A stretch of 64,000 nucleotides of DNA from Planctomycetota bacterium (GTDB lineage: Bacteria > Planctomycetota > Planctomycetia > Pirellulales > Pirellulaceae): the NCBI GenBank assembly GCA_016872725.1, contig VGZC01000027.1:1-64000 (forward strand), read 5' to 3'. The position numbers and the translations under genes are program-made. The notes below the pieces were generated by a model. That model saw only the letters and a list, made by a program, of their open reading frames with translations. It ran no database searches and was not told the origin of the DNA. This document shows, in pieces, positions 24,408 through 56,834 of the stretch (positions are counted from its first letter, which is position 1; the number at the start of each line of letters is the position of its first letter).

Positions 24408-26369
24408 TCAACCGTCGAGCCATTCGCCGTGCAGGAAGACGCTTTCGTACGCTTGGCGCGATTCGGCATGGTCGAGCATGCGTTGGTAGAACGGATCGCG
24501 TCCGATGGTGGCTGCGTCGCCGATCACGATCAGCGCGCGGCGGGCGCGGGTCCATGCCACGTTCATGCGGCGGTAGTCGCCCAGGAAACCGATCTCGCCC
24601 CGCTCGTTCGACCGCACCAGGGAAACGAGAACGGCCTCCTTTTCCCGCCCCTGGAATCCATCAACCGTGTCGATTTCCATCGATGTGTCGCCGATCGACT
24701 CGCGGACGAGCCGGACCTGCGCCGAATACGGGCTGATGACGGCGAGGTCGGTCGGCGCGACGCCCGCCGCGAGGAACCGCCGGGCAATCCGCGCGGCGAC
24801 CGACGCTTCGCCCGGATTGGCGATGCTCGCGCCCCCTTCCTCGCGCGTCTCCTCGAAGCCGGCCCCCGCCGTATCGATGAACCGCAATGGGCGCGTTGTC
24901 CATGCGTCCGACGCGACACCCGGACATTCGCTCAACGTGTGCGTCGCGACCGATCCGTGTGCCTCCAACGAGCCCTCGTAGAATTCGGCGGACGGGAACT
25001 CCATGATCGTCGAGTGCATTCGATACTGGGTCGTCAACCGCCGCGCGAGGAGTGAACCGTGCGTCGCAAGCAGGCGTTCCATGAGTGTTCGTCCGAGTCC
25101 GAGACGAGCCGCGTCCCGCGAGAGGATGGTGGGGGGAAGCTGGCAGTGGTCGCCGGCCAAGACCAGCCGCTCGCACCGGAGGATCGGGATCCAGCACGCG
25201 GGTTCGGTCGCCTGGGCCGCCTCGTCGATCACCACGAGGTCGAACCGGCGATCGCCGAGGATCGACGCGTCGACGCCGGTGAGCGTCGCGCAGACAACGG
25301 CGGCGCCGTCGAGCAGGTAGTCGACGAGTTGTCCTTCGATGCGGCGCGCGTCGGCGATCCGCTCGGCGGCGTCCTCGCGCAGCTCCCGCCGTTCGTCGCG
25401 ACCGCGCGCGGCCCGCGTCCACCGCGCCGCGTCGTCCCGAAGTCGGCGCGCGTCGCGGATCAGACGCCGCGCGATCTTGAGATCGGGATGCCGCTCGACG
25501 AGACAATCGAGCGTGTGGTCGATCGCCGCCGGAGTCACTCGGGCCGGATGCCCGACGCGAACGACCCGTTCGCCCGCCGCGGCCAGCCGTTCGACCAGCA
25601 AATCGGTCGCCAGATTGCTCGGCGCGCAGGCCAGCACCTTCTGACCGCGCGCGATCGCCTGCCGGATCAGTTCGATGACGGTCGTGGTCTTTCCCGTTCC
25701 GGGCGGACCATGGATGATCGCGACGTCGCCGGCCCCGAGCGCGTGCTCGACCGCCGCGCGCTGCGACGCGTTCAGCTCCGACTTCCACTCGGTGATCGGG
25801 GTCGGGGTCCACGGCGCGATCGGGATCGCGCCGCACAGCAGGTCGCGCAGCCGAGCGAGCCGCCCGCGCGCGACGTTCGAGTTGGTCGGCGAACCCGATG
25901 CTTTCCCCACGTTCGTCGAGCTGGATGCGTGTCCCACGGTGAGCGATCGGATTGCGTCGCGTTGGCGGTCGCGCGAGACCGAGTCGGGCAGCGACTCGAT
26001 TCGCAGCGGCGTTCCGCGCTCCGGTTCGAACGAGCCGCTGACCGCGACCCGGATCGCATGCGAATCGACGCCGCACACGACGGCCCGCCCCCGTTCGCCG
26101 TCTTTCCCCGGCTCGCGTTCCTCGATGATGACGACGGGGCATCCCGGCGTCAGCCGGTGCCACGGCAGCGCATGACGGCCGTCGCGGCCGGCCAGTTCGA
26201 GGATCGCCTTTCCGCCGAACCCGACATCGCGATCGCCGATCACCAGGTGACGCACGAGTTCGCCGCGCCGTTCCAGCCGGTCCGCCGCGCCCGCGCCGTC
26301 CCATGCGCGCAGCTCGGCTTCCTGTTCGAGGTCAATGCACCGCAGCAGGTCGGCAAGATGATCGTTCAT
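24408..26369 (-). CDS. UPF1/SMUBP2-type superfamily 1 helicase
   Basis: About 653 aa from ATG 26369 (GAGGG 12 bases upstream; ATG 26393 is an alternative). The N-terminal 190 residues form a beta-rich domain, as in IGHMBP2. The SF1 motor follows: Q-motif region LNASQRAAV, Walker A GPPGTGKTTT (221-230), Walker B VVIDEAAQATEPA, motif III GDHCQLPPT, motif IV QYRMH, motif V TVDGFQGREKE and motif VI NVAWTRARRALIVIGD. These enzymes unwind RNA or DNA 5' to 3'. The gene stands alone upstream of the propeller gene and divergent from the EthD gene. Confidence 0.92.
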   Translation of the reverse strand: MNDHLADLLRCIDLEQEAELRAWDGAGAADRLERRGELVRHLVIGDRDVGFGGKAILELAGRDGRHALPWHRLTPGCPVVIIEEREPGKDGERGRAVVCGVDSHAIRVAVSGSFEPERGTPLRIESLPDSVSRDRQRDAIRSLTVGHASSSTNVGKASGSPTNSNVARGRLARLRDLLCGAIPIAPWTPTPITEWKSELNASQRAAVEHALGAGDVAIIHGPPGTGKTTTVIELIRQAIARGQKVLACAPSNLATDLLVERLAAAGERVVRVGHPARVTPAAIDHTLDCLVERHPDLKIARRLIRDARRLRDDAARWTRAARGRDERRELREDAAERIADARRIEGQLVDYLLDGAAVVCATLTGVDASILGDRRFDLVVIDEAAQATEPACWIPILRCERLVLAGDHCQLPPTILSRDAARLGLGRTLMERLLATHGSLLARRLTTQYRMHSTIMEFPSAEFYEGSLEAHGSVATHTLSECPGVASDAWTTRPLRFIDTAGAGFEETREEGGASIANPGEASVAARIARRFLAAGVAPTDLAVISPYSAQVRLVRESIGDTSMEIDTVDGFQGREKEAVLVSLVRSNERGEIGFLGDYRRMNVAWTRARRALIVIGDAATIGRDPFYQRMLDHAESRQAYESVFLHGEWLDG

Positions 26370-34724: not shown

Positions 34725-34739
34725 TTGGGGACGCCGAGG

Positions 34740-35190
34740 ACGCGCGGATCTCGACCGTGCGCTGGCTTCGAGCGGGTGCAACTGTTTTTCGGGGATGCCG
34801 ATCGCATCTACCATCCGATCGACGCCGCGCGTCAGCGGCAGGCGGTTCAGTTCCTGATCGAACGCGCATTCGCGACGCCCGCCGCGCTCGTCGACCCGAA
34901 CGTGCTCGAGCGGCTGGAAGCCGGCGGAGCTCCCGATCGCATCTTGGGTGGCCAGAAACCGATCCGCGCGTCGCTGCTCAGCGACGCGCGGCTCAAACGG
35001 ATGGCCGAGCACGCGCAGCGCGCCGGCGGAGACGCCTACACGCCCGCCCAGCTCATGGCCGACCTGCATGCGGGGATCCGGGCCGAGCTCGGCGCCGACC
35101 CCGGCGTGATCGACCTATACCGGCGCAATCCCCAGCGCGCGCGCCCGGACCTGCTGGTCGCGCGACTCCAATCCGATGACGACTCGACCG
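34740..35190 (+). pseudogene. C-terminal fragment of a DUF4953/DUF5117-type zinc metalloprotease
   Basis: About 135 residues read like the extreme C-terminus of large secreted zinc-dependent proteases of the DUF4953 group: GDADRIYHPIDAARQRQAV, LVDPNVLERLEAGGAPDRIL, SLLSDARLKRMAEHAQ, AYTPAQLMADLHAGIRAEL and DLYRRNPQRAR. The catalytic domain (HExxH and a propeller-like N-terminus, about 650 residues) is missing; upstream sequence is non-coding with an inverted repeat. The frame has no ribosome-binding site of its own and continues without a stop into the next, unrelated protein. I read it as the stump left by a deletion or insertion. Confidence 0.6.
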
Positions 35191-35306
35191 AAGCCGCGGC
35201 CCCGGTAGGCGACGGCTTCGGGTTTCACGAGAAGCCGGACGCCGCTTCCTTGTGGCGGTCAACACTATGGATACCGTACTCGACCAACCGCACCGTCTCG
35301 GGCAAA

Positions 35307-37769
35307 ATGCAATCGCGCCCCGATCCGGGTCGCTCGTTGCGCCAGTACGCGGTACGTATCTTCGACCTCGATCGGTATGCGGGCATGCCCATCTCTCCGT
35401 ATCCCAGACCTGGCCATCCGATCGCGCCAACCATACTCGCGCCGTTCCTTCAACACAAGGCGCCGAGGGTTGGCGTTCTATTCTCGGAATTGGACGCGAC
35501 GGCGTGGGACCGCTTTTCTCCGGCGACGTGCAGGAATCTGGGACGGAAGCTGATCGAGCGCCTCAAACCGCGCGTTAACGAGATTGAGACGCTCGTTGGC
35601 GCGGAACGAGTGGCTCCGGCACCCGCGTGCCTGACACTGCAACAACTTGACATCGAGACGCGGACGTTCAACTGCCTCATCGCAGTCAATATCGACGAAG
35701 CACCTGGAGGCGTTGCGGGATTGACCGTTCGGGATGCGCTTGCCATGCGCGCGTTCGGCGTCAAGTCGCTTGTCGATTTGCTCACGTCGGTCGAGGCGGC
35801 GGTTGCCGCTTGCCCTGGAACAACCGACGTGCCATTGCGTCGAAATGAGCCGGCCAAGACCGTTTTCCCGGTCGACATATGCGGATTGATCCGACGATAC
35901 GGCTACGCTCCAGCCTGCATCGAGGCTCTTCGCATGCCGGCACTTCCCCGCGACATCCTGTTGGAGGATCTTGGACTTCGCAATCGAACGCTTCACGCCC
36001 TGATTCAGGCGGGCTATCAAGACGACCCGACACGTCTGGGAGGCCTCACGTTTCGTCAATTCATGGCACTACCCAAATTCGGCGCGGTAAGCCTCTGCGA
36101 CCTGATTGAGGCCGTCGAGCGCATTGCGAATCGCCGATGCGAGCTTCCTTCGGGGCAGGACGTTCGACGAGACGAGTGGCGTCTTGTCGTGGATACGATA
36201 CGCGATGCCGACGCGATTCCGAATTCCGTCTTGACGAGCACCATTCCGCCGCTGCCTCCCCGTTCGACGATCAAGGACCTTGGACTGCAACCTCGCACGC
36301 GAAGCGTGCTCGATCGGGAAGGCATCACCAGGACGTCGCAGCTAACCGACAGGACGGTCGGAAGTCTGTGTGAATTGCGGGGCTTTGGTCGGGCCTGCGT
36401 TCTCGATCTACTGACGAGTGTCTGTCGCCTTCGCGAGTCCGCCGGTCGCCTCGGACACGACAAGAGACCGCATTATCGTGAGATCGACAAGACGGTCAAG
36501 GCGATCTGCTCCGTGCCCGGCGTTTCCTCCGTCGGTAAGTCCGATCCGCGACTCGGGCGCTTGCTCCGAAACGTGGACGCCGGCATCGCCACAATTGGTG
36601 ACCTGAGGGACAATTGCAAAAGGTCGGCCGTCCTTGGACGAAAGCGGGTGCTGGATCGACTGCAAGCGACGATTCGCCATTGCGAGGGACTAACCGTGGA
36701 ACGGGAACTGTTCGACCTGATCGTCGGGCAAAGGGCGCCGTCACGGAATAGTGGACTCGTGGCGGAATACTACGGATTCCATGGGCAACCTCTTCAATCG
36801 CTTCAGGCCATCGGCGCCAGACATGGGTTGTCTCGCGAACGCATTCGCCAAATTTGTGCTCCGAACCGGATTACCCGATTGCCGCAACCTCCGTTCGCGC
36901 CGGCCATTGACGCGGCTCTCGCGCTGGTGCGTGATCAAGTTCCCGCGTCTCGGTCGCGCATCGAGAGGCTCCTTGTCGAGCGACACCTCGTGGAGGCGGA
37001 AACGACAATCGAGTGCTTGTTGCGAGTCGGCCGTTTCTTGCGCCGCGAAGCCGATTTCGCGTTCCTGGGGACTGGGAAATCCGCATTCGTCGTTTCACCC
37101 GCGGAATTCGGACCCATCAAACAGGTCGAATCCACCGCGCGCAGGCTCGTTTTCAATTACGGAGCAGCGGCCATCGATGAAGTCCTTGAACGCTGTGGGG
37201 ATTGTCTCCCCAAGACCAACGCGAGGGGGCTCGTCGTCGCGGCCGTTGAATTGCTGACGGGGTTTCGATGGCTCGACGTGGAGACGGGGTGGTTTGGGTT
37301 CGACGGTAGTCATCACACTCGACTTCGTCAAAGGATCCGAAAGGTCCTGTCGGTCTGTGGCCCGATCGATGTGGAGGAATTGCGATCCGCGATGGGACGC
37401 GACTTCCGTTGGTCGGATCGTATTCCTCCAAAGGGCGTTCTCCTCGAGTTGTGCCGGCAAATGCGCGAGGTCGTGGTCGACGGTGAGTTCGTCAAGGCCA
37501 AGGTGAAGGGAGGGTCGGCGGCGTTGTTGCGCGGTGCCGAGGCCAAGATAGTGGAAATCTTTCTCAAGCACGGACCGATTTGCCGACTGGAGAACCTGCA
37601 ACACCTCGCGTCGGAAGCGGGCATCGGCGACCACTCGTTTTGGAGGTGCCTTGTGAATTGCCCGACCATCTCCAGATACGCGCCCAGGGTATACGGTCTG
37701 GTTGGCGCAAAAGCAACGCCGGCCCTGATCGAATCGCCGCCAAATCGGCGTCGCGCCGACGATCGTTGA
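35307..37769 (+). CDS. Protein with alpha-CTD-like repeats and sigma-4-like HTH, unknown function
   Basis: About 820 aa if started at ATG 35307 (ATG 35385 is an alternative); the frame is open upstream into the protease stump at 34740-35190. Three segments resemble the RNA polymerase alpha C-terminal domain helix-hairpin-helix. They are near 35627-35790 (LTVRDALAMRAFGVKSLVDL), near 35940-36120 (LEDLGLRNRTLHALIQAGY, then LPKFGAVSLCDLIEAVE) and near 36250-36420 (IKDLGLQPRTRSVLDREGIT, then LRGFGRACVLDLLTSV). Near 36800-36860, LQAIGARHGLSRERIRQI matches sigma-70 region 4.2. The C-terminal 300 residues appear winged-helix-like. The lack of a signal peptide and the domain set point to nucleic-acid or RNA polymerase binding. 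GC is lower than its neighbours in several sampled stretches, fitting acquisition. Confidence 0.6.
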   Translation: MQSRPDPGRSLRQYAVRIFDLDRYAGMPISPYPRPGHPIAPTILAPFLQHKAPRVGVLFSELDATAWDRFSPATCRNLGRKLIERLKPRVNEIETLVGAERVAPAPACLTLQQLDIETRTFNCLIAVNIDEAPGGVAGLTVRDALAMRAFGVKSLVDLLTSVEAAVAACPGTTDVPLRRNEPAKTVFPVDICGLIRRYGYAPACIEALRMPALPRDILLEDLGLRNRTLHALIQAGYQDDPTRLGGLTFRQFMALPKFGAVSLCDLIEAVERIANRRCELPSGQDVRRDEWRLVVDTIRDADAIPNSVLTSTIPPLPPRSTIKDLGLQPRTRSVLDREGITRTSQLTDRTVGSLCELRGFGRACVLDLLTSVCRLRESAGRLGHDKRPHYREIDKTVKAICSVPGVSSVGKSDPRLGRLLRNVDAGIATIGDLRDNCKRSAVLGRKRVLDRLQATIRHCEGLTVERELFDLIVGQRAPSRNSGLVAEYYGFHGQPLQSLQAIGARHGLSRERIRQICAPNRITRLPQPPFAPAIDAALALVRDQVPASRSRIERLLVERHLVEAETTIECLLRVGRFLRREADFAFLGTGKSAFVVSPAEFGPIKQVESTARRLVFNYGAAAIDEVLERCGDCLPKTNARGLVVAAVELLTGFRWLDVETGWFGFDGSHHTRLRQRIRKVLSVCGPIDVEELRSAMGRDFRWSDRIPPKGVLLELCRQMREVVVDGEFVKAKVKGGSAALLRGAEAKIVEIFLKHGPICRLENLQHLASEAGIGDHSFWRCLVNCPTISRYAPRVYGLVGAKATPALIESPPNRRRADDR

Positions 37770-47039: not shown

Positions 47040-49787
47040 TCATGACGACGACGGCCCCGCTTCTCCATCCGAGCCGGCGGCGGAAAAGACGGCCCAAAAA
47101 TAGGGATGGAGCCACGGTTCGGCTTTCTTTGACTTCCGCAATGCATCCACGAAACTCCGCTGCGACTCGGCGAGCGCCGACGAAGGCCGTGCGCCGGCCG
47201 CCACGCGTTTGAAGAAACCCAGCATCAGACGCGGAGCCGTTCCGTCGTACACGTCCCATAGTCCGGAAACGACGACCCGCGAACCGGACTGGAGGAAGGC
47301 CCGCTGAAGGCCGAACAGATCGTCGCCCGGCAGCGGCGAGCGATCCCCCAGGCCCGAATAGCAGGCATTCATCAGCACTACGTCCGCCCGCACGCGCGTT
47401 CCATACACTTCGCGGGCCGTCAATCGGCCATCGTTTCCGCCACGCGCCGGCGAGTCGTCTGGTTGGTCGCCACTCGACGGCTCGGGCAGGAACAGGAGGT
47501 GGCTTTCCAACGGATCCAAGGCGTCATTCATCCCGTGCGTCGCCAAGACGAGGAGTCCAGGCCGACGGAGCGCGTCCTTGGCCTCGCTCTCGCGCGCCGC
47601 GTCGCCTTGCGAAATCTTGGATACTCGTGATCCGAACACCGAACGCACATTCTCGATATCGGCGTCGACTCCGGGAAGCGGATCGGCTCCGGGCAATTCC
47701 GCAACGCCGACCGCCGAAACCTGATCGATGGCCCGCCACGCTTTCCGACCCAGAAGGTCCCACGTCGCCAGGGATGGCGCGTAGATCACATCAAACGGTT
47801 CGTCCAAGAGGAATCGAGGACGGACCATGTCCATCTTCCCGCGCGGCTCGGCGTCGAGTTCCGTAACGAGCGCCGCGAAGGGAAAGTAATGCAAGACATG
47901 ATGCGGCACGACGACGACCGTCTTGGCTTCTCGCAGCCGTTCCCGAAAGGCCGTCGGTATGAGCCGATCGTGGAGTTCATGGAGTTCATTCTGCCACGCA
48001 TGGTCGAAACCGCCGCCCGACAAGATGTCGCGAGCCATCTTCGCCGAATGGTTGTTGATGCCGGCCAGGAACGCACGCACCTGCCGGATGAGTTCGGCGG
48101 GCGGCATCGGCGCGCCGGACGCATCGCACAGCGGGGCCGCGTGGACTTGTCCGGACGTGTCCACGAGGAACACCCAAGCGACGCGGCTTCCGAGGAAATA
48201 CTCAAGCACCGCGACGTGTCGAGGCCACCGCCCCAGGAGTTCGGAAAGCGAGTCGCCGGGGCCGGCGTCGCGGGTCGGCAGATTCGCGGCCTCCAGTACG
48301 TCCTGAGCGGATCGGGCCTTCGCGAGTTCGGCGTAACGCAGGGCTTCGGCGGGACGGCCCGCACCGATCAGCAGTTCGACGATATGTTCATGGACGTAGC
48401 TGCGTCGAGCAATAAAGCCCGCTCGACCCAGACCGACCTGATCGGACGGGAACTGCTCGCGCAGTTGTTCGGCGACGATCTGCGACACCAGGAACTGGCG
48501 CAAGGCCGACGCTTCGTCCCCGCATCGCAATTCCACGAGCCCGAGAAGGCGCGCCACACTTTCCACGCCGGCCAATCGGCCATTCGCGACGTACGATTCG
48601 CGCGCGACGGCCGCATGCCGACGGCTCGCTTCCCAGTCTCCCGCGCGGAACGCGAGGTGCGCGCGAAGTTCGTGCGCGAAAGCGATCGTCGCCGAGTCCT
48701 GGACGCGATCCGCCGAGCGATCGGTGACCTGTTGGGCAAACCGATCCGCCGTCCTCGCCGCCGTCGCCTCCACCTCCGACGAACGACTTTCCATCGGATC
48801 CCCGTTATCCAACATGCGAATCGTGTCGGCGAGGAGCGCGTAGAGGCGAGCGAGATTGATGCGTGTGGCCGCGGTCTCCTCGACATCGCCCATTCCGTCC
48901 GCCAATTCGAGTGCCGATTCGTACTCGTCGAGCGCCGCCTGCCACGCCCCCAGCGCCGTCAGGATGGGCCGTTCCACGCCCACCGCCGTGCGAAATGAAG
49001 CGTTGTTGAGTCGATCCTGAGCCTGCCGCAAGAGGAAGTTGCCGTAGTTCACATGCGCTCGGTATTGGTCCGACGCATGACCGCCCTCCAAACGGCGAAT
49101 GGCCTGTTCAAATGCGGCGGTCGCATCGCGTTCGCGCGTCGCTCCGGCCTCCGACAGGATGACGCCGCGGTACGTGTCGGCAAGTCCCGCGGACCGAGGT
49201 TCCGATGCCGCGTCCCGACTTATTGCGTCGAGCTCGGCCAACGCCTCGTCCCACCGTCCAAAGGCGATCTTGTCGCGGGCCGCATCGATGGATGGGATCC
49301 CTGTCGTTCGCTCGACGCCGCCCGTCACAAGATGGGCGGATGACGCGCCCGGATCGCGCGCCAAATGCTCGAGCCACTGCAGCAACTGTTCCCTGCGCTT
49401 CCGCAGGTGGGCTGTCAGTGATGCGTCGGGCCTGTCGCGAAGGGCCATCCACGCGTCATTCAAATGGAGCGGCACACCGCTCTCATCCTTCTCGCTCAAC
49501 AACGCCTCAACCGAAAACGTAATGAACATCGGATCCTCGGGGTCATTGACGATCCGCGCCAATGCATCGATCGAACGCATGGCGAGCCGACGGCGCGCGG
49601 GGTCCGCGACCCGGAACTCGGTCTGTTCCGCCGCGTTTTCCAATTGAACGCGGTAATTCCCCGGCGGAAGGCCATCAAGGTGTTCCGGAACGGCGGCCGC
49701 GATTCCGGTCCACGCGAGTTCCGCCTTGCCGCTTGGGAAACGAAACTCGACAAGCGGCTGAGCGCGGTTCGATTCGCGAATCCGCAC
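47040..49787 (-). CDS. CHAT-domain protein, main part (separated from its N-terminus by a stop)
   Basis: 915 aa counting from GTG 49785-49787, which has no ribosome-binding site. A mainly helical TPR-like middle (for example FGRWDEALAELDAISRD, FEQAIRRLEGG, RYAELAKARSAQDVLEAANL) leads to a C-terminal CHAT peptidase domain. The catalytic dyad is visible: His in LVLATHGMND near residue 750 and Cys in LMNACYSGLG near 809, followed by LQRAFLQSGSRVVVSGLWDV. CHAT enzymes are separase/caspase-clan proteases. The frame upstream of the GTG is the same as that of the gene ending at 49794, so the two may be one gene (see findings). Confidence 0.88.
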   Translation of the reverse strand: MRIRESNRAQPLVEFRFPSGKAELAWTGIAAAVPEHLDGLPPGNYRVQLENAAEQTEFRVADPARRRLAMRSIDALARIVNDPEDPMFITFSVEALLSEKDESGVPLHLNDAWMALRDRPDASLTAHLRKRREQLLQWLEHLARDPGASSAHLVTGGVERTTGIPSIDAARDKIAFGRWDEALAELDAISRDAASEPRSAGLADTYRGVILSEAGATRERDATAAFEQAIRRLEGGHASDQYRAHVNYGNFLLRQAQDRLNNASFRTAVGVERPILTALGAWQAALDEYESALELADGMGDVEETAATRINLARLYALLADTIRMLDNGDPMESRSSEVEATAARTADRFAQQVTDRSADRVQDSATIAFAHELRAHLAFRAGDWEASRRHAAVARESYVANGRLAGVESVARLLGLVELRCGDEASALRQFLVSQIVAEQLREQFPSDQVGLGRAGFIARRSYVHEHIVELLIGAGRPAEALRYAELAKARSAQDVLEAANLPTRDAGPGDSLSELLGRWPRHVAVLEYFLGSRVAWVFLVDTSGQVHAAPLCDASGAPMPPAELIRQVRAFLAGINNHSAKMARDILSGGGFDHAWQNELHELHDRLIPTAFRERLREAKTVVVVPHHVLHYFPFAALVTELDAEPRGKMDMVRPRFLLDEPFDVIYAPSLATWDLLGRKAWRAIDQVSAVGVAELPGADPLPGVDADIENVRSVFGSRVSKISQGDAARESEAKDALRRPGLLVLATHGMNDALDPLESHLLFLPEPSSGDQPDDSPARGGNDGRLTAREVYGTRVRADVVLMNACYSGLGDRSPLPGDDLFGLQRAFLQSGSRVVVSGLWDVYDGTAPRLMLGFFKRVAAGARPSSALAESQRSFVDALRKSKKAEPWLHPYFWAVFSAAGSDGEAGPSSS

Positions 49788-49793
49788 GACGCG

Positions 49794-50297
49794 TTAGGGA
49801 TAGGCCTGGTCGCCGGTACCCTCGGGCAACCTCCGAAAGACGGCTCGCCCGTCAAGCAGCTCCGCGTTGTGCCGGGGACTGACGAGCAGCGCCGCCCGCG
49901 TCAACGTTCCCGTCGCCAGTTGCTCGACACGGATGTCGCGCAAGAACCCGACCGGCCCACTCGACGTATCACCGCGCGTGCCGCCGCGGACGGCCGACAG
50001 TTCGACAAAGGGGGTTGTTTCGGCCGGGGTTGATGGCCCGGGCCATGCGTCAAGCCTCGAAAGCGACTGGCAGTATTCCGTGGTTCCGTCGGGCGACCAC
50101 ACGACCAAACCGACCTGGCCGGGCTCCATCGCCTGGTCTTCGTCAATCGACTCCACGACCACGTTGCCTTCGTGATCCACTCGGATAACGCGGATCTCGG
50201 ATGCCGCCGTAGCGAGCGGGGCGCCGACCAGGATGATCAAGGGCACGATGCGCCAATCAATCCCGGCGGCTGAGCGAATTCCCAGGGCATCCCCCAT
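49794..50297 (-). CDS. Exported N-terminal segment in frame with the CHAT protein
   Basis: About 167 aa from ATG 50297. An export or anchor segment (IVPLIILVGAPLATAASE) is followed by a beta-rich domain (RVIRVDHEGNVVVESIDE, QVGLVVWSPDGTTEY, GFLRDIRVEQLATGTLTRAA) and ends GRAVFRRLPEGTGDQAYP before TAA (49794-49796). The next codons in the same frame (CGC GTC GTG CGG ...) continue as VRIRESNRAQPLVEFRFPSG of the CHAT protein. That reads naturally as the same beta domain. As a stand-alone protein it is unrecognised. Confidence 0.65.
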   Translation of the reverse strand: MGDALGIRSAAGIDWRIVPLIILVGAPLATAASEIRVIRVDHEGNVVVESIDEDQAMEPGQVGLVVWSPDGTTEYCQSLSRLDAWPGPSTPAETTPFVELSAVRGGTRGDTSSGPVGFLRDIRVEQLATGTLTRAALLVSPRHNAELLDGRAVFRRLPEGTGDQAYP

Positions 50298-50761
50298 GTT
50301 GCGTTTCTCGTCGTGGTGTCCGTCCCCGCCCATCATCCTGGCCAAGCCGAATCTACTCGTCCCGCCCCGGATTGGAAAGCCCTTCGTTCCTGACGGGGGA
50401 GTGCGTCCACCGGCATGTTGACTCACCGTTCCGTCCTACCAGACGCGATCCGGGGCCGAACCGGACACGATTCCTCAAAAAAAACCAAGAACTCGTCCCA
50501 ATGGGCCGCCACATCGGGACGCGACGTGGTCTATTCGTACGAATCACTGGAGAGGAACGCGCGACGGGAACGGCGAGACGAAGAGGCTCACCGCCAGTCT
50601 CCGCTCAGCACGAACGGCGCCCAGTAATACGGCGAGGCGCGATTCGAGGCGTCTTGGGCGCCGGCCCTCTCGCGCACCGCGCCGCGCTGCGCGAGGGTCT
50701 TGGATTCGGATTTCTCCCGCACAACGCCGCGCGGCGGTTCGGAGTCCGAATCGGAGTCCGA
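50298..50761. other. Intergenic region, no feature recognised
   Basis: 464 bases between the two CHAT-related genes on the minus strand. There is an A-run (near 50477) and no credible gene or strong hairpin. The promoter of the downstream CHAT operon probably lies here, but I cannot identify its boxes. Confidence 0.4.
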
Positions 50762-53700
50762 TTAGGCCGCCGCGCGCGGCTCGCCGCGCCGCGGGCCTTG
50801 GTTGAGCATCCAAAGCTGCGCCTCGCGCAGTGCCTCGTGCGTCGGAAGGTCCCGATCCCAGAGATTCCGGTAGAACCGTTCCATCAGAGCCCGCGTCTGG
50901 TCATCGTCGACCTTCCAGAGCGACGCCATGACCGTATCCGCGCCCGCGACTTGAAACGCGCGCTGCAACCCCAACACGCCCTCGCCGCGCGCGAGCGTTC
51001 CAAGCCCAGTTTCGCACGCGCTGAGCGTGACGAGCGCGACGCCCCGCAAGTCGGCCGTTCCCACTTCCTCGGCCGTCACGAATCCGTCGATCATACCGGC
51101 GTCACTCTCCGATTCGGCCGGAGGTCGATTCGCGCCGGCGAGCACCAGACCGGACAACGGGTTTGACGCGACGGCATTCCGCGGGGCATTCGCCGCCCAC
51201 GCGTCGTCCTCGTCGAACCCGTTGGACCGATCCACGTCCGCCGTCTCCCGTTCGCCGGCCGCGAAGAACCCGTGTGTCGCGATGTGCAGGTAGGCATGCC
51301 GAGGCGATTCCCGCCAAAAAGCGCGTTCGCCGGCATCGGCTTTCCGCAACGTCGTCACTCGGTCGTTTCCGAACGTATGCCGATAGAGCTTCTCGACGGC
51401 CGCGATTTCCTCGAGCGTACCATCGAGGGGCGCAAATGGTCCCAGGACTCCGTCACGGGTGAAACGAGGCCCGAATCGACGCGCCGATCGTTCCGAACCG
51501 ATCGAGCCGACCGCATCGGCCGGTTCGATCGCGTCGGCCGCTCGATCGTAGTCGACGCCGCCGATCAGCAGGAGGTTCTTCTCGGCGCTGGGCCGCGGGC
51601 CGTCGTCGAACATCGCGGGCAACCCTTGCGCGGCGGGCACGAGCGCGAACGTCCGCTCTTCGACCAGGTATCGGTCACCGGCGGCCTTCGCGGGCAATGC
51701 CGCGAACGGAACGCCCGCCATGGCGCCGTCGGGTGAGACTACGATGATCTCCGCGTCGCCGACGTACGGTTCGATCGGATCCCATAGGCGTGTTCTCAGG
51801 ACGACGCCCGCTTCCCGACCGGACTCGGTTTGGCCATACGATGCGCGCCACGCCGCGACAGCGGGCGCGATCGGCGCCGCGTCACCCAGGGGGACGAGCC
51901 GCAAAGGCGCATCGCGCCGGACGACGAACGCGACCAGTTGCCGCGTGCCTTTCGCGGGGACGGGATCGGTCGAACGGCGAATCGGGACGTATTCCAAATA
52001 GTCCACCAGAACCGCATCGGAGGGCAGGCTTGTTCGTACCGATTCAGCCGTGACGGGCGAGCGGGCAAGACGATACGATTCGTTCTTCGCGGCGAGTTCC
52101 GCCTCGATCGCCTCCTTCCGACGCGACCAATCATCGATCCGCCGCCGCCACGCATCGCGCTCGGCGGGAGCGGGCGTCCGGAGGGCGAGTGACGCGAGCC
52201 GACGCGTCAAGGAGGCGAGTTCCGCGCTGCGAGGCTCGGTTGTCGTGTCGTCCCGCAACGTGCGCATCGCCCGTTGCCTGGAAAACACCGAACCTTTCCA
52301 CTGCAGAACCTGGTCATAGGCCGAGTCGGCGTGCGATCCGGAACTCGCGGAAACCGCGACATAGGAATCGAGGAATCGGCGGGCCGTCTTGACCATCGCC
52401 AACTGCTGCCGCTGGGATTGCACGGACGCCGACGTCTCGATCAGGCGCCGCATCACGGGTATCGCCTCGCGCAGCAGCGACTCGGCGCCCGCGTCATCCC
52501 CGCGTTTCGCGAGGATCCGCGCCAGAAGACGCTTGGTTTCGGCCGTTCGCGGATGTTCGCCGCCGAACGTCGCGACTTCGAGTGCATGGCTCTCCCGCAT
52601 GAGTCGCTCCGCTTCGGGCAAATCCCCTTTCGACATGTGCCAGATCGCCAGATTGGTCATGCTGAATATCGTTTTGGGATGGTTGGGTCCCAACGATTCG
52701 CGATACGCGGCAAGGCTTCGCTCCAAGTACGGCAGGGCTCGATCGAGTTGCCCCGAGGATTCGAACAGCGCGCCCAGGTTGTTGAGGATATCGGCCGTAC
52801 CGGGATGGGAATCTCCAAGCGCCTCGCGCTGGGTTGCCAGGCTTTGCTCCAACAGGCGTTCGGCATCGGCGGTCATGCCGCGCGCGCCGAGCAACGTTGC
52901 GAGGTTGCTTCGGACTTTGGCGACTTCCAAGTGGTCTTTCCCAAGAGCGCCCTCGAGCATCGCCAGACTGCGCTCATAAAGCGCCTGGGCCATCTCGATA
53001 TCGCCCATCGTCTCGCGCACATCGGCGAGATTGTTGAGCATTCCGGCCAAGTCCCGAGGGTTGGTGTCGGAATCGTCCTCCAGAATCGAGAGCCCCTCCG
53101 ACATCAGGGACACGGCGCGCGCCGTGTTTCCGAGGTCCGAATGAAGGAGGGCGAGGCTATTTTGCGCGGCGATCGTGTCCGGATGTTCGGCGCCAAGATG
53201 GTCCCGCTGCATTTTCCAACCGCGGTCGAGCAGCGGTTCGGCTCGCACCAGGTCGCCCACATCGGCATAGAGCGAGCCGAGGTTCACGACGTGTTTTGCG
53301 ATCGCCGGATGCTCGGCTCCCCTAGCCGCTTCGCCGATCCGAATGCTCTCCTGAAAACAGGACTCGGCACGCTCGAAGTCGCATTGCCATTGATAGACCA
53401 GTCCGAGGTTGTTGAGTGTCACGACCGCGCCGGATTCGTCCGGTTCCTCGCCGCCGCGCTGGATTTTCAATGCCCGCTCAAAGAGCGCCGCCGCCTCGTC
53501 GAGTTTGCCGAGGGCGCGTGCGAGCGAGGCGAGGTTGTTCAGATTGAGCGCGGTGTGGGGATGCGACGGTCCCAACACCTTTTCGCAGATTTCCAGGCTG
53601 CGGCGATAAAGCGGTTCCGCCTCGGCGTACCGCCCCATCGAATCGTAAAGGAGGGCCAGATTATTGAAGCACGCGGCCGTGTCGGGATGATCGTCGCCGA

Positions 53701-54442
53701 TCGTAGTCCGCGCCACGTCGAGCGCGCGCCGCAAAAGCGGTTCGGCCTTCGAGCCGTTCCCCATCGCGATATGCAGCGATGCGAGGTTGTTCAAGTGGTC
53801 GGCGATGGTCCGATCGGCATTGCCGAACAGGTCGGAATGAAGGGCCAAGGCGCGTTCGGCGTCGGGAAGGGCTTCCGCGTAGCGGCCCTCGTCGTAGAGC
53901 GTCCAGACACGATCGGCGAGCTTCTTCGCGTCCCGCGCCCGGGACCTCGTTTCGGGCTCCATCGCGTGGAGCCGTTCCAATCGGGCGCGTTTGAGCCTCG
54001 CGTTGGCCACACGCCAGTCGTCCGCCCCGAACCGTTCCCGGCGCAGCGCCAGCAATTCGTCGCATAGCCGCATCGCCTCGCGGAATTCGTCCGCGTCGCC
54101 GTGGAGGTCCACGAGAATGTCGAGTGATTCGAAAATGTCGTCGTGCAATCGATCGAACAGCTCCCGCTCGATCGCCAGCATCTTCGTCGCGGCGCCGATC
54201 GCCTCACGCCATCGGCCCTGGTCGCGGAATTCGATCGCCTGGGCCGCATATCGATCCCGCTCGTCGATCCGTGTCCGGGACGGTGGCTCGGTCGGCGCGG
54301 CGCGCAGGCCGATCGAACGGGGCCCGAGGCCGCCATCGCCGGCGCACCGCGCCCAAACGAGGAGTGCGAACGCCGCGACGGCCAACGCCCGGCCCATTCC
54401 GCGACGCGGGGCGTCCTTCCCGGCCCACCATCCGTCTTGCAT
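50762..54442 (-). CDS. TPR-rich CHAT-domain protein, exported or membrane anchored
   Basis: 1226 aa from ATG 54442, preceded by GGGAGG 7 bases upstream. A hydrophobic N-terminus (ALAVAAFALLVWARCAG) indicates export or anchoring. Residues about 60-700 hold about 12 kinesin-light-chain-type TPRs, each with the core HPDTAxxxNNLAxLxxxxGxxxxAExLxxRxL (for example NNLALLYDSMGRYAEAEPLY). The C-terminal CHAT domain has His in LHIATHGFFA (about residue 1055) and Cys in LVTLSACETGLG (about 1142), then FQVAGADTVMASLWKVDD. The layout matches TPR-CHAT proteases such as the partner of type III-E CRISPR effectors, but no CRISPR genes are here. Confidence 0.93.
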   Translation of the reverse strand: MQDGWWAGKDAPRRGMGRALAVAAFALLVWARCAGDGGLGPRSIGLRAAPTEPPSRTRIDERDRYAAQAIEFRDQGRWREAIGAATKMLAIERELFDRLHDDIFESLDILVDLHGDADEFREAMRLCDELLALRRERFGADDWRVANARLKRARLERLHAMEPETRSRARDAKKLADRVWTLYDEGRYAEALPDAERALALHSDLFGNADRTIADHLNNLASLHIAMGNGSKAEPLLRRALDVARTTIGDDHPDTAACFNNLALLYDSMGRYAEAEPLYRRSLEICEKVLGPSHPHTALNLNNLASLARALGKLDEAAALFERALKIQRGGEEPDESGAVVTLNNLGLVYQWQCDFERAESCFQESIRIGEAARGAEHPAIAKHVVNLGSLYADVGDLVRAEPLLDRGWKMQRDHLGAEHPDTIAAQNSLALLHSDLGNTARAVSLMSEGLSILEDDSDTNPRDLAGMLNNLADVRETMGDIEMAQALYERSLAMLEGALGKDHLEVAKVRSNLATLLGARGMTADAERLLEQSLATQREALGDSHPGTADILNNLGALFESSGQLDRALPYLERSLAAYRESLGPNHPKTIFSMTNLAIWHMSKGDLPEAERLMRESHALEVATFGGEHPRTAETKRLLARILAKRGDDAGAESLLREAIPVMRRLIETSASVQSQRQQLAMVKTARRFLDSYVAVSASSGSHADSAYDQVLQWKGSVFSRQRAMRTLRDDTTTEPRSAELASLTRRLASLALRTPAPAERDAWRRRIDDWSRRKEAIEAELAAKNESYRLARSPVTAESVRTSLPSDAVLVDYLEYVPIRRSTDPVPAKGTRQLVAFVVRRDAPLRLVPLGDAAPIAPAVAAWRASYGQTESGREAGVVLRTRLWDPIEPYVGDAEIIVVSPDGAMAGVPFAALPAKAAGDRYLVEERTFALVPAAQGLPAMFDDGPRPSAEKNLLLIGGVDYDRAADAIEPADAVGSIGSERSARRFGPRFTRDGVLGPFAPLDGTLEEIAAVEKLYRHTFGNDRVTTLRKADAGERAFWRESPRHAYLHIATHGFFAAGERETADVDRSNGFDEDDAWAANAPRNAVASNPLSGLVLAGANRPPAESESDAGMIDGFVTAEEVGTADLRGVALVTLSACETGLGTLARGEGVLGLQRAFQVAGADTVMASLWKVDDDQTRALMERFYRNLWDRDLPTHEALREAQLWMLNQGPRRGEPRAAA

Positions 54443-54578
54443 ATCGAATCCTCCCAGCCCTATAGTCGCGAATGGCAGCCGTCGTGTCCGGTGTCCGTTC
54501 CGATTGCGTTGTATTTGTCAGGATCGGCCCGCGGCAACGGGGCCGGCATCGACCCTACGAACCGGGAGCCGTTTCCCC

Positions 54579-56834
54579 ATGACGTTTCCGTCTTGTCATG
54601 TTCCCGATCGCGGGCACCGCAGTCAGTGTAACCCATGTTCGTGGTTTCGCGCTATTCCGATTCTTGCCGCATGGGTGGCCGGAATGACCTTGGAAGCGCG
54701 CGGGCAGGACGCGCGGACTTCCCGAATTGCCGAGCGGCACGCGTTGTTGGTGGGCGTCACGGCGTACGCGAACCTGCCCGAGTCGTTGCAGCTCAAGGGT
54801 CCCGCGAACGATGTCCGCCTGATGCGGGAACTTCTTGTCAACCGGTTCGGTTTCGTGCCGGACCATGTTCGCGTGCTCGCCGAGGGCGAGCCGGACGGTG
54901 ACGCGGCTCGCCCGACGCTGGCCAACATCGGACGTGAATTCCGACGGCTCGCCGACGCGGCCCGATCGGGCGACCAGGTCGTCATCCTGATGGCCGGGCA
55001 CGGCAGCCAACAACCCGATCAGGACCCGCCCGGTTCGGACGACCGCGAGCCCGACGGGCTCGACGAGATTTTCTTGCCGGCCGATGTCGGAGCGTGGTCG
55101 GGCGCGATCGGACAAGTCGAGCGGGCTATCTCCGATGACCAACTGCGCGCGTGGTTGAACCCGATCCGGGAGAACGGCGCCTCGCTCTGGGTGATCCTGG
55201 ACTCATGCCACTCGGGGACCATGGTTCGGGGCGCCGATCAGGAAGTCGTTCGCCAAATCCCACCGGGCGCGTTGATCCCGGAAAACGTGATGGAAAGCGT
55301 TCGGTCGATCACGCGCGATCCGGAGACGGTTCAGGATCGGATGCCTCTCGCGCGGCGCGCGGACGGCGCCGCCCCGCTGGTCGCCATGTACGCCGCTCAG
55401 GCGAACGAAGTCACCGTCGAAAAGGCCCTTCCCTCGGGAGCCCGCGACAAGAAGCCGCACGGGCTATTCACCTACACGATCACGCAGGTGCTGTCCCAGG
55501 CCAATGGACCGCTCACGTACCGGGAACTCGTGAGCCGCGTGCAGGCTCGATATTCGCAAACGGGCCGCACCGCTCCCACGCCGCTCGTCGAAGGCGCCGA
55601 CCGGGATCGCGAGGTCCTCGGTTCCAAGCAATGGCCGGGCCGTTCCCGCATGGCGCTCGCCAAATCCGATCGGGAATGGACCGTATCGGCCGGGCGCCTT
55701 CAAGGCGTTCTGGAGGGAAGTGTGCTTGCCGTCTTTCCGCCGCCGGGACGAGCGCGAACCGAGAAGCCGCTCGGATATGTCACGGTCATCGAGTCGCGGA
55801 CATTCGATTCGATCGTCGAACCGCGCGAATACGAGGGTATCGCGACCGATGCCGCGAGCTTGCCGGTCGGCGGCATCTGCGACACGGTCTTCGTCGACTG
55901 CGGCGATCTTCGCCTGCGCGTCGCCGCGGATCCCCTCGATCATCGCGGTCATCCGGTGGACGCCCCTCTTCTTGAGTCCTTGCGACGGAAACTCGATTCG
56001 ATGTGCGGCGCGGAGGGCTCTTTCGTTCAGGCGGTCGACGCGTCCTCGGACGCGGATTGGTTGATCCGCGCGGATCGTGGCGGCGTCTATCTTGTGCCCG
56101 CGTCCGGAGTCGTCGCCGATCGCGGCGCCGACGGCTCGGCGCTGCCGCCGATCTATGGCCCGGCGCCCCAAGGAGCCGACGAGACCGATTGGCTGAAGGA
56201 CCGATTGAACCGGATCGCGCGCGTGAAAAACCTCGTTCGGCTCACCGGCCTATCCGCCGACGCGGGAGACGATGCGGCGCCGTCGCCGATCGAATTGACG
56301 ATGGTCCGTCTGCGGGACCGGAAGGATCGCGAGGGGATCGCCATCGGCGCCGAGGAGAACGGCGCGGTGCTGCACCACGACGACTGGGTCGAGCTGAAGC
56401 TGACGAATTCGGGTCGCGATCCGGTCGATGCGACGCTGCTCTATATCGACAGCGCGTTCGGCATCGATTGCCTGTATCCGCGGGACGGAGAGGACAATCG
56501 ATTGCGGCCCGGCAATTCGGTTCCGATCCGCATTCGAGTCGATGGGCGAACGGCCGGACTCGAACACCTGGTCGTGATCGGCGTGCGGGCGGTCGCGGGT
56601 CCGCCGGCCGACTTCTCGGTGCTGACGCAAGAACCGATCGAGCGGGGCGCGGCCATCGCACGGAACCGCGGCGGAGCGCCGGTCGCGCCCCAATCGCCGC
56701 TCGGCAAGTTGCTCGAACGGGCCGCGAACGCGAGGGGCACGACACGCGGCGTCCAGCGGGCTACACTGGACGACCATGTGCTGCGTCTGCATTCGTGGGT
56801 CATCCGGTCCCAACCTCGAAACGTCGGCCGTTGA
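54579..56834 (+). CDS. Secreted caspase-family (C14) peptidase-like protein
   Basis: 751 aa from ATG 54579 (GGGAG 10 bases upstream). An export segment lies at residues 24-40 (FRAIPILAAWVAGMTLEARG). The caspase domain (50-330) starts RHALLVGVTAYANLPESLQL and carries His141 in LMAGHGSQQ and Cys210 in VILDSCHSGTM, a complete p20 dyad. The rest is beta-rich, ending in a DUF4384-like segment (VLHHDDWVELKLTNSGRDPV ... CLYPRDGEDNRLRPG). It is divergent from the TPR-CHAT gene with 136 bases between them, so they may share regulation. Confidence 0.9.
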   Translation: MTFPSCHVPDRGHRSQCNPCSWFRAIPILAAWVAGMTLEARGQDARTSRIAERHALLVGVTAYANLPESLQLKGPANDVRLMRELLVNRFGFVPDHVRVLAEGEPDGDAARPTLANIGREFRRLADAARSGDQVVILMAGHGSQQPDQDPPGSDDREPDGLDEIFLPADVGAWSGAIGQVERAISDDQLRAWLNPIRENGASLWVILDSCHSGTMVRGADQEVVRQIPPGALIPENVMESVRSITRDPETVQDRMPLARRADGAAPLVAMYAAQANEVTVEKALPSGARDKKPHGLFTYTITQVLSQANGPLTYRELVSRVQARYSQTGRTAPTPLVEGADRDREVLGSKQWPGRSRMALAKSDREWTVSAGRLQGVLEGSVLAVFPPPGRARTEKPLGYVTVIESRTFDSIVEPREYEGIATDAASLPVGGICDTVFVDCGDLRLRVAADPLDHRGHPVDAPLLESLRRKLDSMCGAEGSFVQAVDASSDADWLIRADRGGVYLVPASGVVADRGADGSALPPIYGPAPQGADETDWLKDRLNRIARVKNLVRLTGLSADAGDDAAPSPIELTMVRLRDRKDREGIAIGAEENGAVLHHDDWVELKLTNSGRDPVDATLLYIDSAFGIDCLYPRDGEDNRLRPGNSVPIRIRVDGRTAGLEHLVVIGVRAVAGPPADFSVLTQEPIERGAAIARNRGGAPVAPQSPLGKLLERAANARGTTRGVQRATLDDHVLRLHSWVIRSQPRNVGR

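What the first reader, a model, noticed from the sequence alone, without database searches (positions are those of the whole stretch)
35307..37769. Protein with three RNA polymerase alpha-CTD-like repeats and a sigma-4.2-like HTH
Three segments follow the alpha-CTD pattern (DLxLxxRTxxxLxxxGI ... LxxLxxFGxxxxxDLLxxV) and a fourth region matches sigma region 4.2 (IGARHGLSRERIRQI), followed by about 300 residues of probable winged helices. Both parts normally contact promoters or RNA polymerase; their multiplication in one protein suggests a transcription regulator, an RNA polymerase mimic or an anti-phage factor acting on transcription. It sits alone in an accessory-looking island.
Basis: partly seen in the sequence, partly recalled or inferred. 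Interest (0 to 1): 0.7.

Follow-up and report, generated by a model that had tools for sequence, protein, structure and literature searches.

The report
RNA-polymerase-like promoter-reading regulator family
A planctomycete gene encodes a protein that joins the two parts of RNA polymerase that normally touch the upstream half of a promoter, plus extra winged-helix domains, and it is most likely a transcription regulator rather than a phage defence.

Summary
The protein is real, with a corrected start: the gene most likely runs 35385-37769 (794 aa). The in-frame stretch before it is the tail of an unrelated broken metalloprotease gene (DUF4953). It holds three alpha-CTD-like repeats, a sigma region 4 and four predicted winged helices. 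The repeats are RNA polymerase alpha-CTD homologues, not generic helix-hairpin-helix: all 42 PDB sequences matched by the module profile are RNAP alpha. Repeat 1 keeps six of seven alpha-CTD DNA-contact residues, with D for E at the seventh; repeats 2 and 3 have lost most. Region 4 keeps the -35-contact motif. No sigma region 2 or 3 and no alpha-NTD was found, so it should not work as a sigma factor or alpha subunit. Relatives form a family in planctomycete genomes of the same order. Several, some of them without the alpha-CTD, sit beside hydrogenase-maturation or isocitrate-dehydrogenase genes; no defence system was recognised among scanned neighbours. In the window's family 1 of 241 genomes has it, and its GC3 is low, so it was probably acquired. 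Best reading: a DNA-binding transcription regulator that reads upstream promoter elements as RNAP does. The anti-phage reading is not supported. Binding is untested. A new variant of an architecture I recall being noted in 2012.

The parts
34791..35090 (+). remnant of an unrelated gene: C-terminal 100 positions of a DUF4953 (PF16313) metalloprotease, in the same frame as the factor; not part of it
   Evidence: Pfam 3.7e-15, profile 214-313 of 316; GC3 0.823 for 34776-35300; open frames of 828-896 aa at the matches in 3 of 59 other genomes
35385..37769 (+). the factor, 794 aa, most likely start ATG at 35385
   Evidence: homologue P0003 starts at the aligned Met; open to the stop; GC3 0.667
35385..35621 (+). 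N-terminal part of module 1 (YPRPGxPIxP ... FSELDxxxWD ... long helix), residues 1-79, conserved in the family; not folded alone
   Evidence: alignment A6; model of the whole module, mean pLDDT 91
35634..35795 (+). alpha-CTD repeat 1 (residues 84-137); R93 N96 C97 G125 K127 S128 D131 = E. coli R265 N268 C269 G296 K298 S299 E302
35961..36119 (+). alpha-CTD-like repeat 2 (residues 193-245), contact residues mostly lost (R H A G V S D), low model confidence
36267..36422 (+). alpha-CTD-like repeat 3 (residues 295-346), contact residues mostly lost (R S V G A C D)
   Evidence: structure overlay on alpha-CTD chains at rmsd 0.9-1.7 over 57-61 residues
36468..36689 (+). linker/helical region with conserved DPRLG-like motif (residues 362-435)
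36696..36875 (+). sigma-70 region 4 (4.1 and 4.2), residues 438-497; motif RERIRQ at 36834-36851
36900..37094 (+). winged helix 1 (residues 506-570)
   Evidence: AlphaFold2 secondary structure, my reading
37098..37301 (+). winged helix 2 (residues 572-639)
   Evidence: SelB winged helices 1lva Z 9.5 over model residues 575-711
37320..37499 (+). winged helix 3 (residues 646-705)
37515..37700 (+). winged helix 4 (residues 711-772)

Best explanation
It is a DNA-binding transcription regulator that reads the upstream half of a promoter with the parts RNA polymerase itself uses. The sigma-4 HTH would dock on a -35-like hexamer, and alpha-CTD repeat 1 would sit in the minor groove just upstream, as in the UP/-35 complex 3n97. 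The other repeats and the four tandem winged helices would add contacts, spacing or specificity. With no region 2 or 3 and no alpha-NTD, it should not melt DNA or assemble into core polymerase. The simplest outcome is occupation of particular promoters: repression by occlusion, or activation if region 4 also touches the beta flap. Shown here: the domain homologies, the retained contact residues, the missing parts, and relatives beside metabolic genes. Inferred: DNA binding, the site, the sign of regulation and the targets. The window copy is a single, probably acquired, deep-branching member.
For: (1) Module profile A6 matches 42 PDB sequences at E<=0.1, all RNAP alpha, best 9.7e-8. The module model overlays alpha-CTDs in 43 of the 44 rows shown, rmsd 1.0-2.5 over 53-61 residues, Z 4.2-7.2. 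(2) Contact positions over 37 family repeats: R265 36/37, N268 23/37, C269 32/37, G296 28/37, K/R298 37/37, S/C299 37/37, E/D302 37/37; strict identity to E. coli 0.59 against 0.30 for random sets of seven positions, p 0.018. Three of 40 repeats were dropped: window repeats 2 and 3 and the second of L098. Repeat 1 reads R N C G K S D. (3) Sigma70_r4 matches 29/29 rows; the family profile hits sigma factors over region 4 at 8e-14. Of 26 relatives found without using the motif, 22 carry RERxRQ and G063 has YERVRQ; three have none: L072, L073 and fragment L071. (4) No region 2 or 3 and no alpha-NTD family in the window protein. (5) Among 91 neighbours at 19 loci: Iso_dh 4, HypA 3, CobW/HypB 3, HycI 2. 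The gene abuts or overlaps a hydrogenase protease or hypA at L051, L067 and L097, and is divergent from the dehydrogenase at L058, L061 and L070.
Against: No DNA-binding, expression or RNAP-interaction data. Four of the six members with those recurrent close neighbours (L058, L061, L070, L097) lack the alpha-CTD module; only L051 and L067 have both, so the neighbour evidence for alpha-CTD-bearing members is thin. Window repeats 2 and 3 have lost most contact residues. Contact residues may be kept for fold reasons. Foldseek itself gave no match at E<=0.001 for either model, and Z under 8 can mean only a common arrangement. The window gene's own neighbours give no target, and no promoter-like site was found on its strand. 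The nearest homologues are about 34% identical, so selection on the window copy was not measured.
Confidence: 0.6

Rival explanations
1. It is mainly an RNA-polymerase-bound cofactor: region 4 docks on the beta flap in place of sigma's own region 4, or the alpha-CTDs bind activators or sigma, so it redirects or blocks holoenzyme instead of finding promoters by itself.
For: The profile match to sigma factors covers about 70 positions, which I read as 4.1 plus 4.2, the parts that meet the flap. Alpha-CTD position D259 is kept in 73% of 37 repeats.
Against: E261, the other recalled sigma-facing residue, is kept in 11%. The winged-helix array and metabolic neighbours fit a site-specific regulator at least as well. 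No interaction was tested.
Confidence: 0.2
2. An anti-phage factor acting on transcription.
For: MzaA models match 29 of 29 rows in NCBIfam and 26 of 29 in PADLOC (best 2.9e-7); PglW matches 2 of 29 (best 1.5e-8) and RmrA 1 of 29 (1.2e-5).
Against: In the window protein the MzaA match is 14.2 bits against a cut-off of 800 and covers only profile 598-695, which I read as its sigma-4 part. Among 91 neighbours PADLOC matched HIT-family, response-regulator-like and other generic models, and SduA once at 8.6e-8; the SduA model is unspecific, ringing in 12 of 14 control genomes, and one of its places is the response regulator at L059. No phage record hit; in viral contigs nothing or short matches of at most 92 query residues.
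Confidence: 0.06
3. An RNA-binding regulator: the winged helices resemble those of elongation factor SelB, which bind the SECIS RNA.
For: 1lva Z 9.5, 2v9v Z 8.8 and 2uwm Z 8.4 over model residues 505-711.
Against: Winged helices are a common fold, the Z-scores are modest and the Foldseek E-values are 0.014 or worse. The alpha-CTD and region-4 parts point to DNA.
Confidence: 0.06
4. A decaying acquired gene without function in this organism, created or exposed by an insertion that broke a metalloprotease gene.
For: Low GC3 and a remnant in the same frame. 1 of 241 family genomes carries it. Contact residues are lost in repeats 2 and 3.
Against: 794 codons without a stop; conserved residues of repeat 1, region 4 and the winged helices are largely intact.
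Confidence: 0.08

Closest known systems
Bacterial proteins that combine features of RNAP alpha subunit and sigma factors, noted by Aravind and Iyer 2012 with the HARE-HTH domain (PMC3272235; abstract recalled, paper not held; only the citation seen, in reference lists of PMC5644247 and PMC10853773)
   Same: alpha-CTD and sigma-4-like parts in one protein with extra winged helices (as recalled)
   Different: no HARE-HTH (PF05066) match at the family genes of 7 genomes at E<=10, behind a loose first look; here the winged helices are nearest to SelB by fold, and the YPRPG-alpha-CTD module occurs one to three times
Primary sigma factor region 4 (RpoD/SigA)
   Same: region 4 and the -35-contact motif
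   Different: no regions 2 and 3 found in the window protein, so no -10 recognition or melting part
RNAP alpha subunit C-terminal domain
   Same: fold and DNA-contact residues
   Different: no alpha-NTD; several repeats; fused to region 4 and winged helices
Proteobacterial and Gemmatimonadota proteins, some annotated 'sigma factor-like helix-turn-helix DNA-binding protein' (plasmids of Pseudomonas, Diaphorobacter, Variovorax, Rhodoferax and others)
   Same: region 4 followed by related winged helices
   Different: match starts at query residue 391 or later, so the alpha-CTD module is not matched; other N-termini, for example one annotated as XRE family in Rhodoferax
MzaA (MZA anti-phage system) and PglW (BREX)
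   Same: a sigma-4 or alpha-CTD-like stretch
   Different: 14.2 of 800 and 12.6 of 990 bits in the window protein; partial matches only

Membership tests
RNAP alpha-CTD (PF03118) | profile match above curated cut-off | tested here: met
   41.6 bits against 23.8; 18 of 29 family rows match at E<=1
RNAP alpha-CTD (PF03118) | DNA-contact residues 265, 268, 269, 296, 298, 299, 302 (positions recalled) | tested here: met
   repeat 1 keeps six and has D for E at 302; repeats 2 and 3 fail
Sigma-70 region 4 (PF04545) | profile match above curated cut-off in the window protein | tested here: inconclusive
   18.2 of 24.1 bits alone, but 29 of 29 family rows match at E<=1, best 1.7e-10
Sigma-70 family sigma factor | regions 2 and 3 for -10 recognition and melting | tested here: not met
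   no such Pfam family matched in the window protein
RNAP alpha subunit | N-terminal assembly domain | tested here: not met
   only C-terminal stretches of the RpoA models match
MzaA (NF041931) | curated cut-off 800 bits | tested here: not met
   14.2 bits, profile 598-695 of 726
HARE-HTH-containing alpha/sigma hybrids (Aravind and Iyer 2012, recalled) | HARE-HTH domain PF05066 | tested here: not met
   no match at the family gene in any of 7 genomes at E<=10, behind a loose first look; not among Pfam matches of the window protein
Helix-hairpin-helix DNA-repair proteins | HhH profile match better than alpha-CTD | tested here: not met
   HHH_5 1 of 29 at 1.7e-4, alpha-CTD 18 of 29, best 5.2e-15
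SelB C-terminal winged helices | tandem winged helices that bind SECIS RNA | tested here: inconclusive
   fold resemblance only, Z 9.5; RNA binding not testable

The most novel reading that the evidence does not exclude
A polypeptide that carries, without polymerase, the upstream promoter-reading half of the holoenzyme: alpha-CTD for the UP element and region 4 for the -35 element. It would use them to occupy or mark chosen promoters, for instance of hydrogenase maturation, so RNAP's own promoter code is reused as a regulatory code by a planctomycete family, some of whose members have since dropped the alpha-CTD and work with region 4 and winged helices alone.
Probability: 0.25. Interest if true: 0.75.

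Novelty: new variant of a known kind. Interest (0 to 1): 0.45.

Why it matters
If the binding model holds, it shows that the DNA-reading surfaces of RNA polymerase can be detached and reused in a stand-alone regulator, and it would give a compact one-chain model of the UP/-35 recognition complex. It also points to a regulator class in planctomycetes, with candidate targets (hydrogenase maturation and isocitrate dehydrogenase promoters of relatives) that can be tested in vitro.

Tried and rejected
Generic HhH: rejected. Anti-phage: neighbours, phage and viral collections gave nothing beyond generic or short sigma-4-sized matches. The large tallies (107 of 396; 25 of 241) were not taken at face value: most are region-4-only matches, which I take for true sigma factors (at most 24.9 bits, at most 51.4). 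The real members, by score, are 20 of 396 (own, G063 and 18 f17 genomes) and 1 of 241. Those searches scored only 2 and 4 candidates per genome, so copies may be missed.

An apparent invariance of RERxRQxC in alignment A4 was not used, because its rows L077-L104 were fetched by the pattern [ST]RER[IT]RQ[IV]C; rows were used instead. Intact DUF4953 frames in three genomes shared no flanking gene with the window, so no empty site could be shown. Upstream regions of three dehydrogenase-divergent members show what look by eye like conserved sigma-70 promoters, but no separate operator could be told apart. Residues 1-79 were not folded alone, and no claim is made about their fold.

Paper searches: (any of three broad terms, uninformative); searches returned nothing; one search listed 15 of 51 HARE-HTH papers, of which I read passages of two; one search returned journal-code noise; one search listed six papers, none opened. 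One search was left unused.

Gene calls around relatives are from my own script, not a standard gene finder. Of 98 neighbours within 3 kb at 20 loci, 91 at 19 loci were scanned; 7 doubtful calls were left out, among them all four of L072, as were neighbours over 1000 or under 60 aa. NikR beside L063 was judged by eye. The tree left out L090, close to L091. E. coli residue numbers and their roles are recalled.

Full report
What was checked. The frame at the stated place is open from 34725 to 37769 (1014 aa). Its first part is not the same protein: residues 23-122 match the C-terminal end of DUF4953 (PF16313, E 3.7e-15, profile 214-313 of 316), so the ORF is a remnant of a metalloprotease gene running in frame into the factor. 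The nearest homologue (P0003, genome G063) begins at the Met aligned with window position 35385. I therefore take 35385-37769 (794 aa) as the gene. GC3 is 0.667 for the factor, 0.823 for the remnant and on average 0.798 (sd 0.041) for 34 other genes over 200 aa predicted by my script; one of the 34 is lower still, 0.658. I read this as one acquired gene beside a native remnant, with moderate confidence.

Domains. Pfam finds RNA_pol_A_CTD (1e-10, two stretches) and a sub-threshold Sigma70_r4. In an alignment of 29 family members, Sigma70_r4 matches 29 and RNA_pol_A_CTD 18 at E<=1; HHH_5 matches one. A profile of the N-terminal module (31 rows) matches 42 distinct PDB sequences at E<=0.1, all RNAP alpha subunits. 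A profile of the whole family matches sigma factors over region 4, best 8e-14. AlphaFold2 with 29 rows gives mean pLDDT 79.8: a well-ordered module 1-145, repeat 2 poorly ordered, repeat 3 at 280-355, region 4 near 438-497, then four units that I read as winged helices. Foldseek gave no PDB match at E<=0.001 for the full model or the module. In the VIA second look, repeat 3 overlays alpha-CTD chains at rmsd 0.9-1.7 over 57-61 residues, 3n97 (alpha-CTD plus region 4 on UP/-35 DNA) among them. Module 1 folded alone (pLDDT 91) overlays alpha-CTDs in 43 of 44 rows, Z 4.2-7.2. The winged helices are nearest to SelB's (Z 9.5), a modest score for a common fold.

Contact residues. Compared with E. coli RpoA (fetched), repeat 1 keeps R265, N268, C269, G296, K298 and S299 and has D at 302. 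The organism's own RpoA reads R N C G T T E. Repeats 2 and 3 keep R265, G296, an acid at 302 and, in repeat 2, S299. Over 37 family repeats the seven positions are kept more than random positions (0.59 against 0.30 strict identity, p 0.018); with conservative exchange 298, 299 and 302 are kept in 37 of 37. Rows are related and count sequences, not events. In region 4, of 26 relatives not chosen by that motif 22 carry RERxRQ, G063 has YERVRQ, and L071 (a fragment), L072 and L073 have none; six of six plasmid relatives carry RERxRQ. The roles of these residues are recalled from the literature.

Family and distribution. The genome has one copy. By score, real members occur in 1 of 241 genomes of the window's family and in 20 of 396 genomes of the order, 18 of them in family f17. 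Of eight member genomes searched with all candidates scored, seven have one gene and one has two; four others show two loci each. Of 28 public loci, 21 have planctomycete titles (Pirellulales, Planctomycetales, Thermoguttaceae and the like), two carry the title of one MAG called Nealsonbacteria that falls inside this clade in the tree and is probably mislabelled, four are Proteobacteria and one is Gemmatimonadota. Modules per protein, among the 26 relatives: two plus region 4 in 9, one plus region 4 in 11, none plus region 4 in 3, modules without region 4 in 2 (one of them with three modules), and one fragment. Relatives on plasmids and in Proteobacteria and Gemmatimonadota show region 4 and winged helices without a match to the module. 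In the tree 27 rows of the planctomycete family group together, with weak second support (95/74). The window row, G063 and L099 are lone deep rows. Members without the module (L058, L061, L070, L097) nest within the one-module clade, so they look like secondary losses.

Neighbourhoods. Around 20 loci of relatives, recurrent neighbours are hydrogenase maturation genes and an isocitrate/isopropylmalate dehydrogenase. A Pfam scan of 91 neighbours at 19 loci gives Iso_dh 4, HypA 3, CobW/HypB 3 and HycI 2. At L051, L067 and L097 the gene abuts or overlaps a hydrogenase protease or hypA; at L058, L061 and L070 it is divergent from the dehydrogenase with 156-276 bp between. Four of these six (L058, L061, L070, L097) lack the module, so for alpha-CTD-bearing members the close link rests on L051 and L067. 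PADLOC matches among the neighbours are few: HIT family 3, mad8 2, and single matches to mad2, mad3, a CARF model, SduA (8.6e-8), PDC-M60B and an ATPase-Toprim model. The SduA model rings in 12 of 14 control genomes and one of its places is the response regulator beside L059, so I count no defence system. The window gene lies between a permease and a cyclophilin and gives no target.

Judgement. The regulator reading is supported by homology, contact residues, lack of other polymerase parts and, more weakly, neighbours; direct function is untested. The defence reading is not supported. I recall that Aravind and Iyer (2012) noted bacterial proteins combining alpha-subunit and sigma features. The paper is not held, and its HARE-HTH domain was not found at the family genes of seven genomes. 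In the held library, searches returned no paper; most subscription papers are not in that library. Hence: a new variant of a known kind.

Noticed in passing
window 47040-56834: Two CHAT-domain proteins (one with TPR repeats) next to a caspase-domain (Peptidase_C14) protein: a planctomycete caspase-like cluster.
   Followed up: no
window 24408-26369: AAA_11/AAA_12 helicase of SMUBP-2/HCS1 type, probably the source of the PADLOC MkoA match of 6e-94.
   Followed up: no
L108 1471-2940 (G000:C2) and L111 1453-1731 (G000:C42): The same genome has a protein with two alpha-CTD domains and TPR-like repeats beside a tgt-like gene (repeats and tgt judged by eye), and a 92-aa protein holding an alpha-CTD: loose reuse of alpha-CTD may be common in this lineage.
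   Followed up: partly
L015 8211-9287 and L018 7995-9068: Pseudomonas megaplasmids carry a region-4 plus winged-helix relative close to their own dnaE, dnaB and dnaG genes.
   Followed up: no
L073 8798-11077: A 759-aa protein with three full YPR...alpha-CTD modules and no region-4 match.
   Followed up: partly
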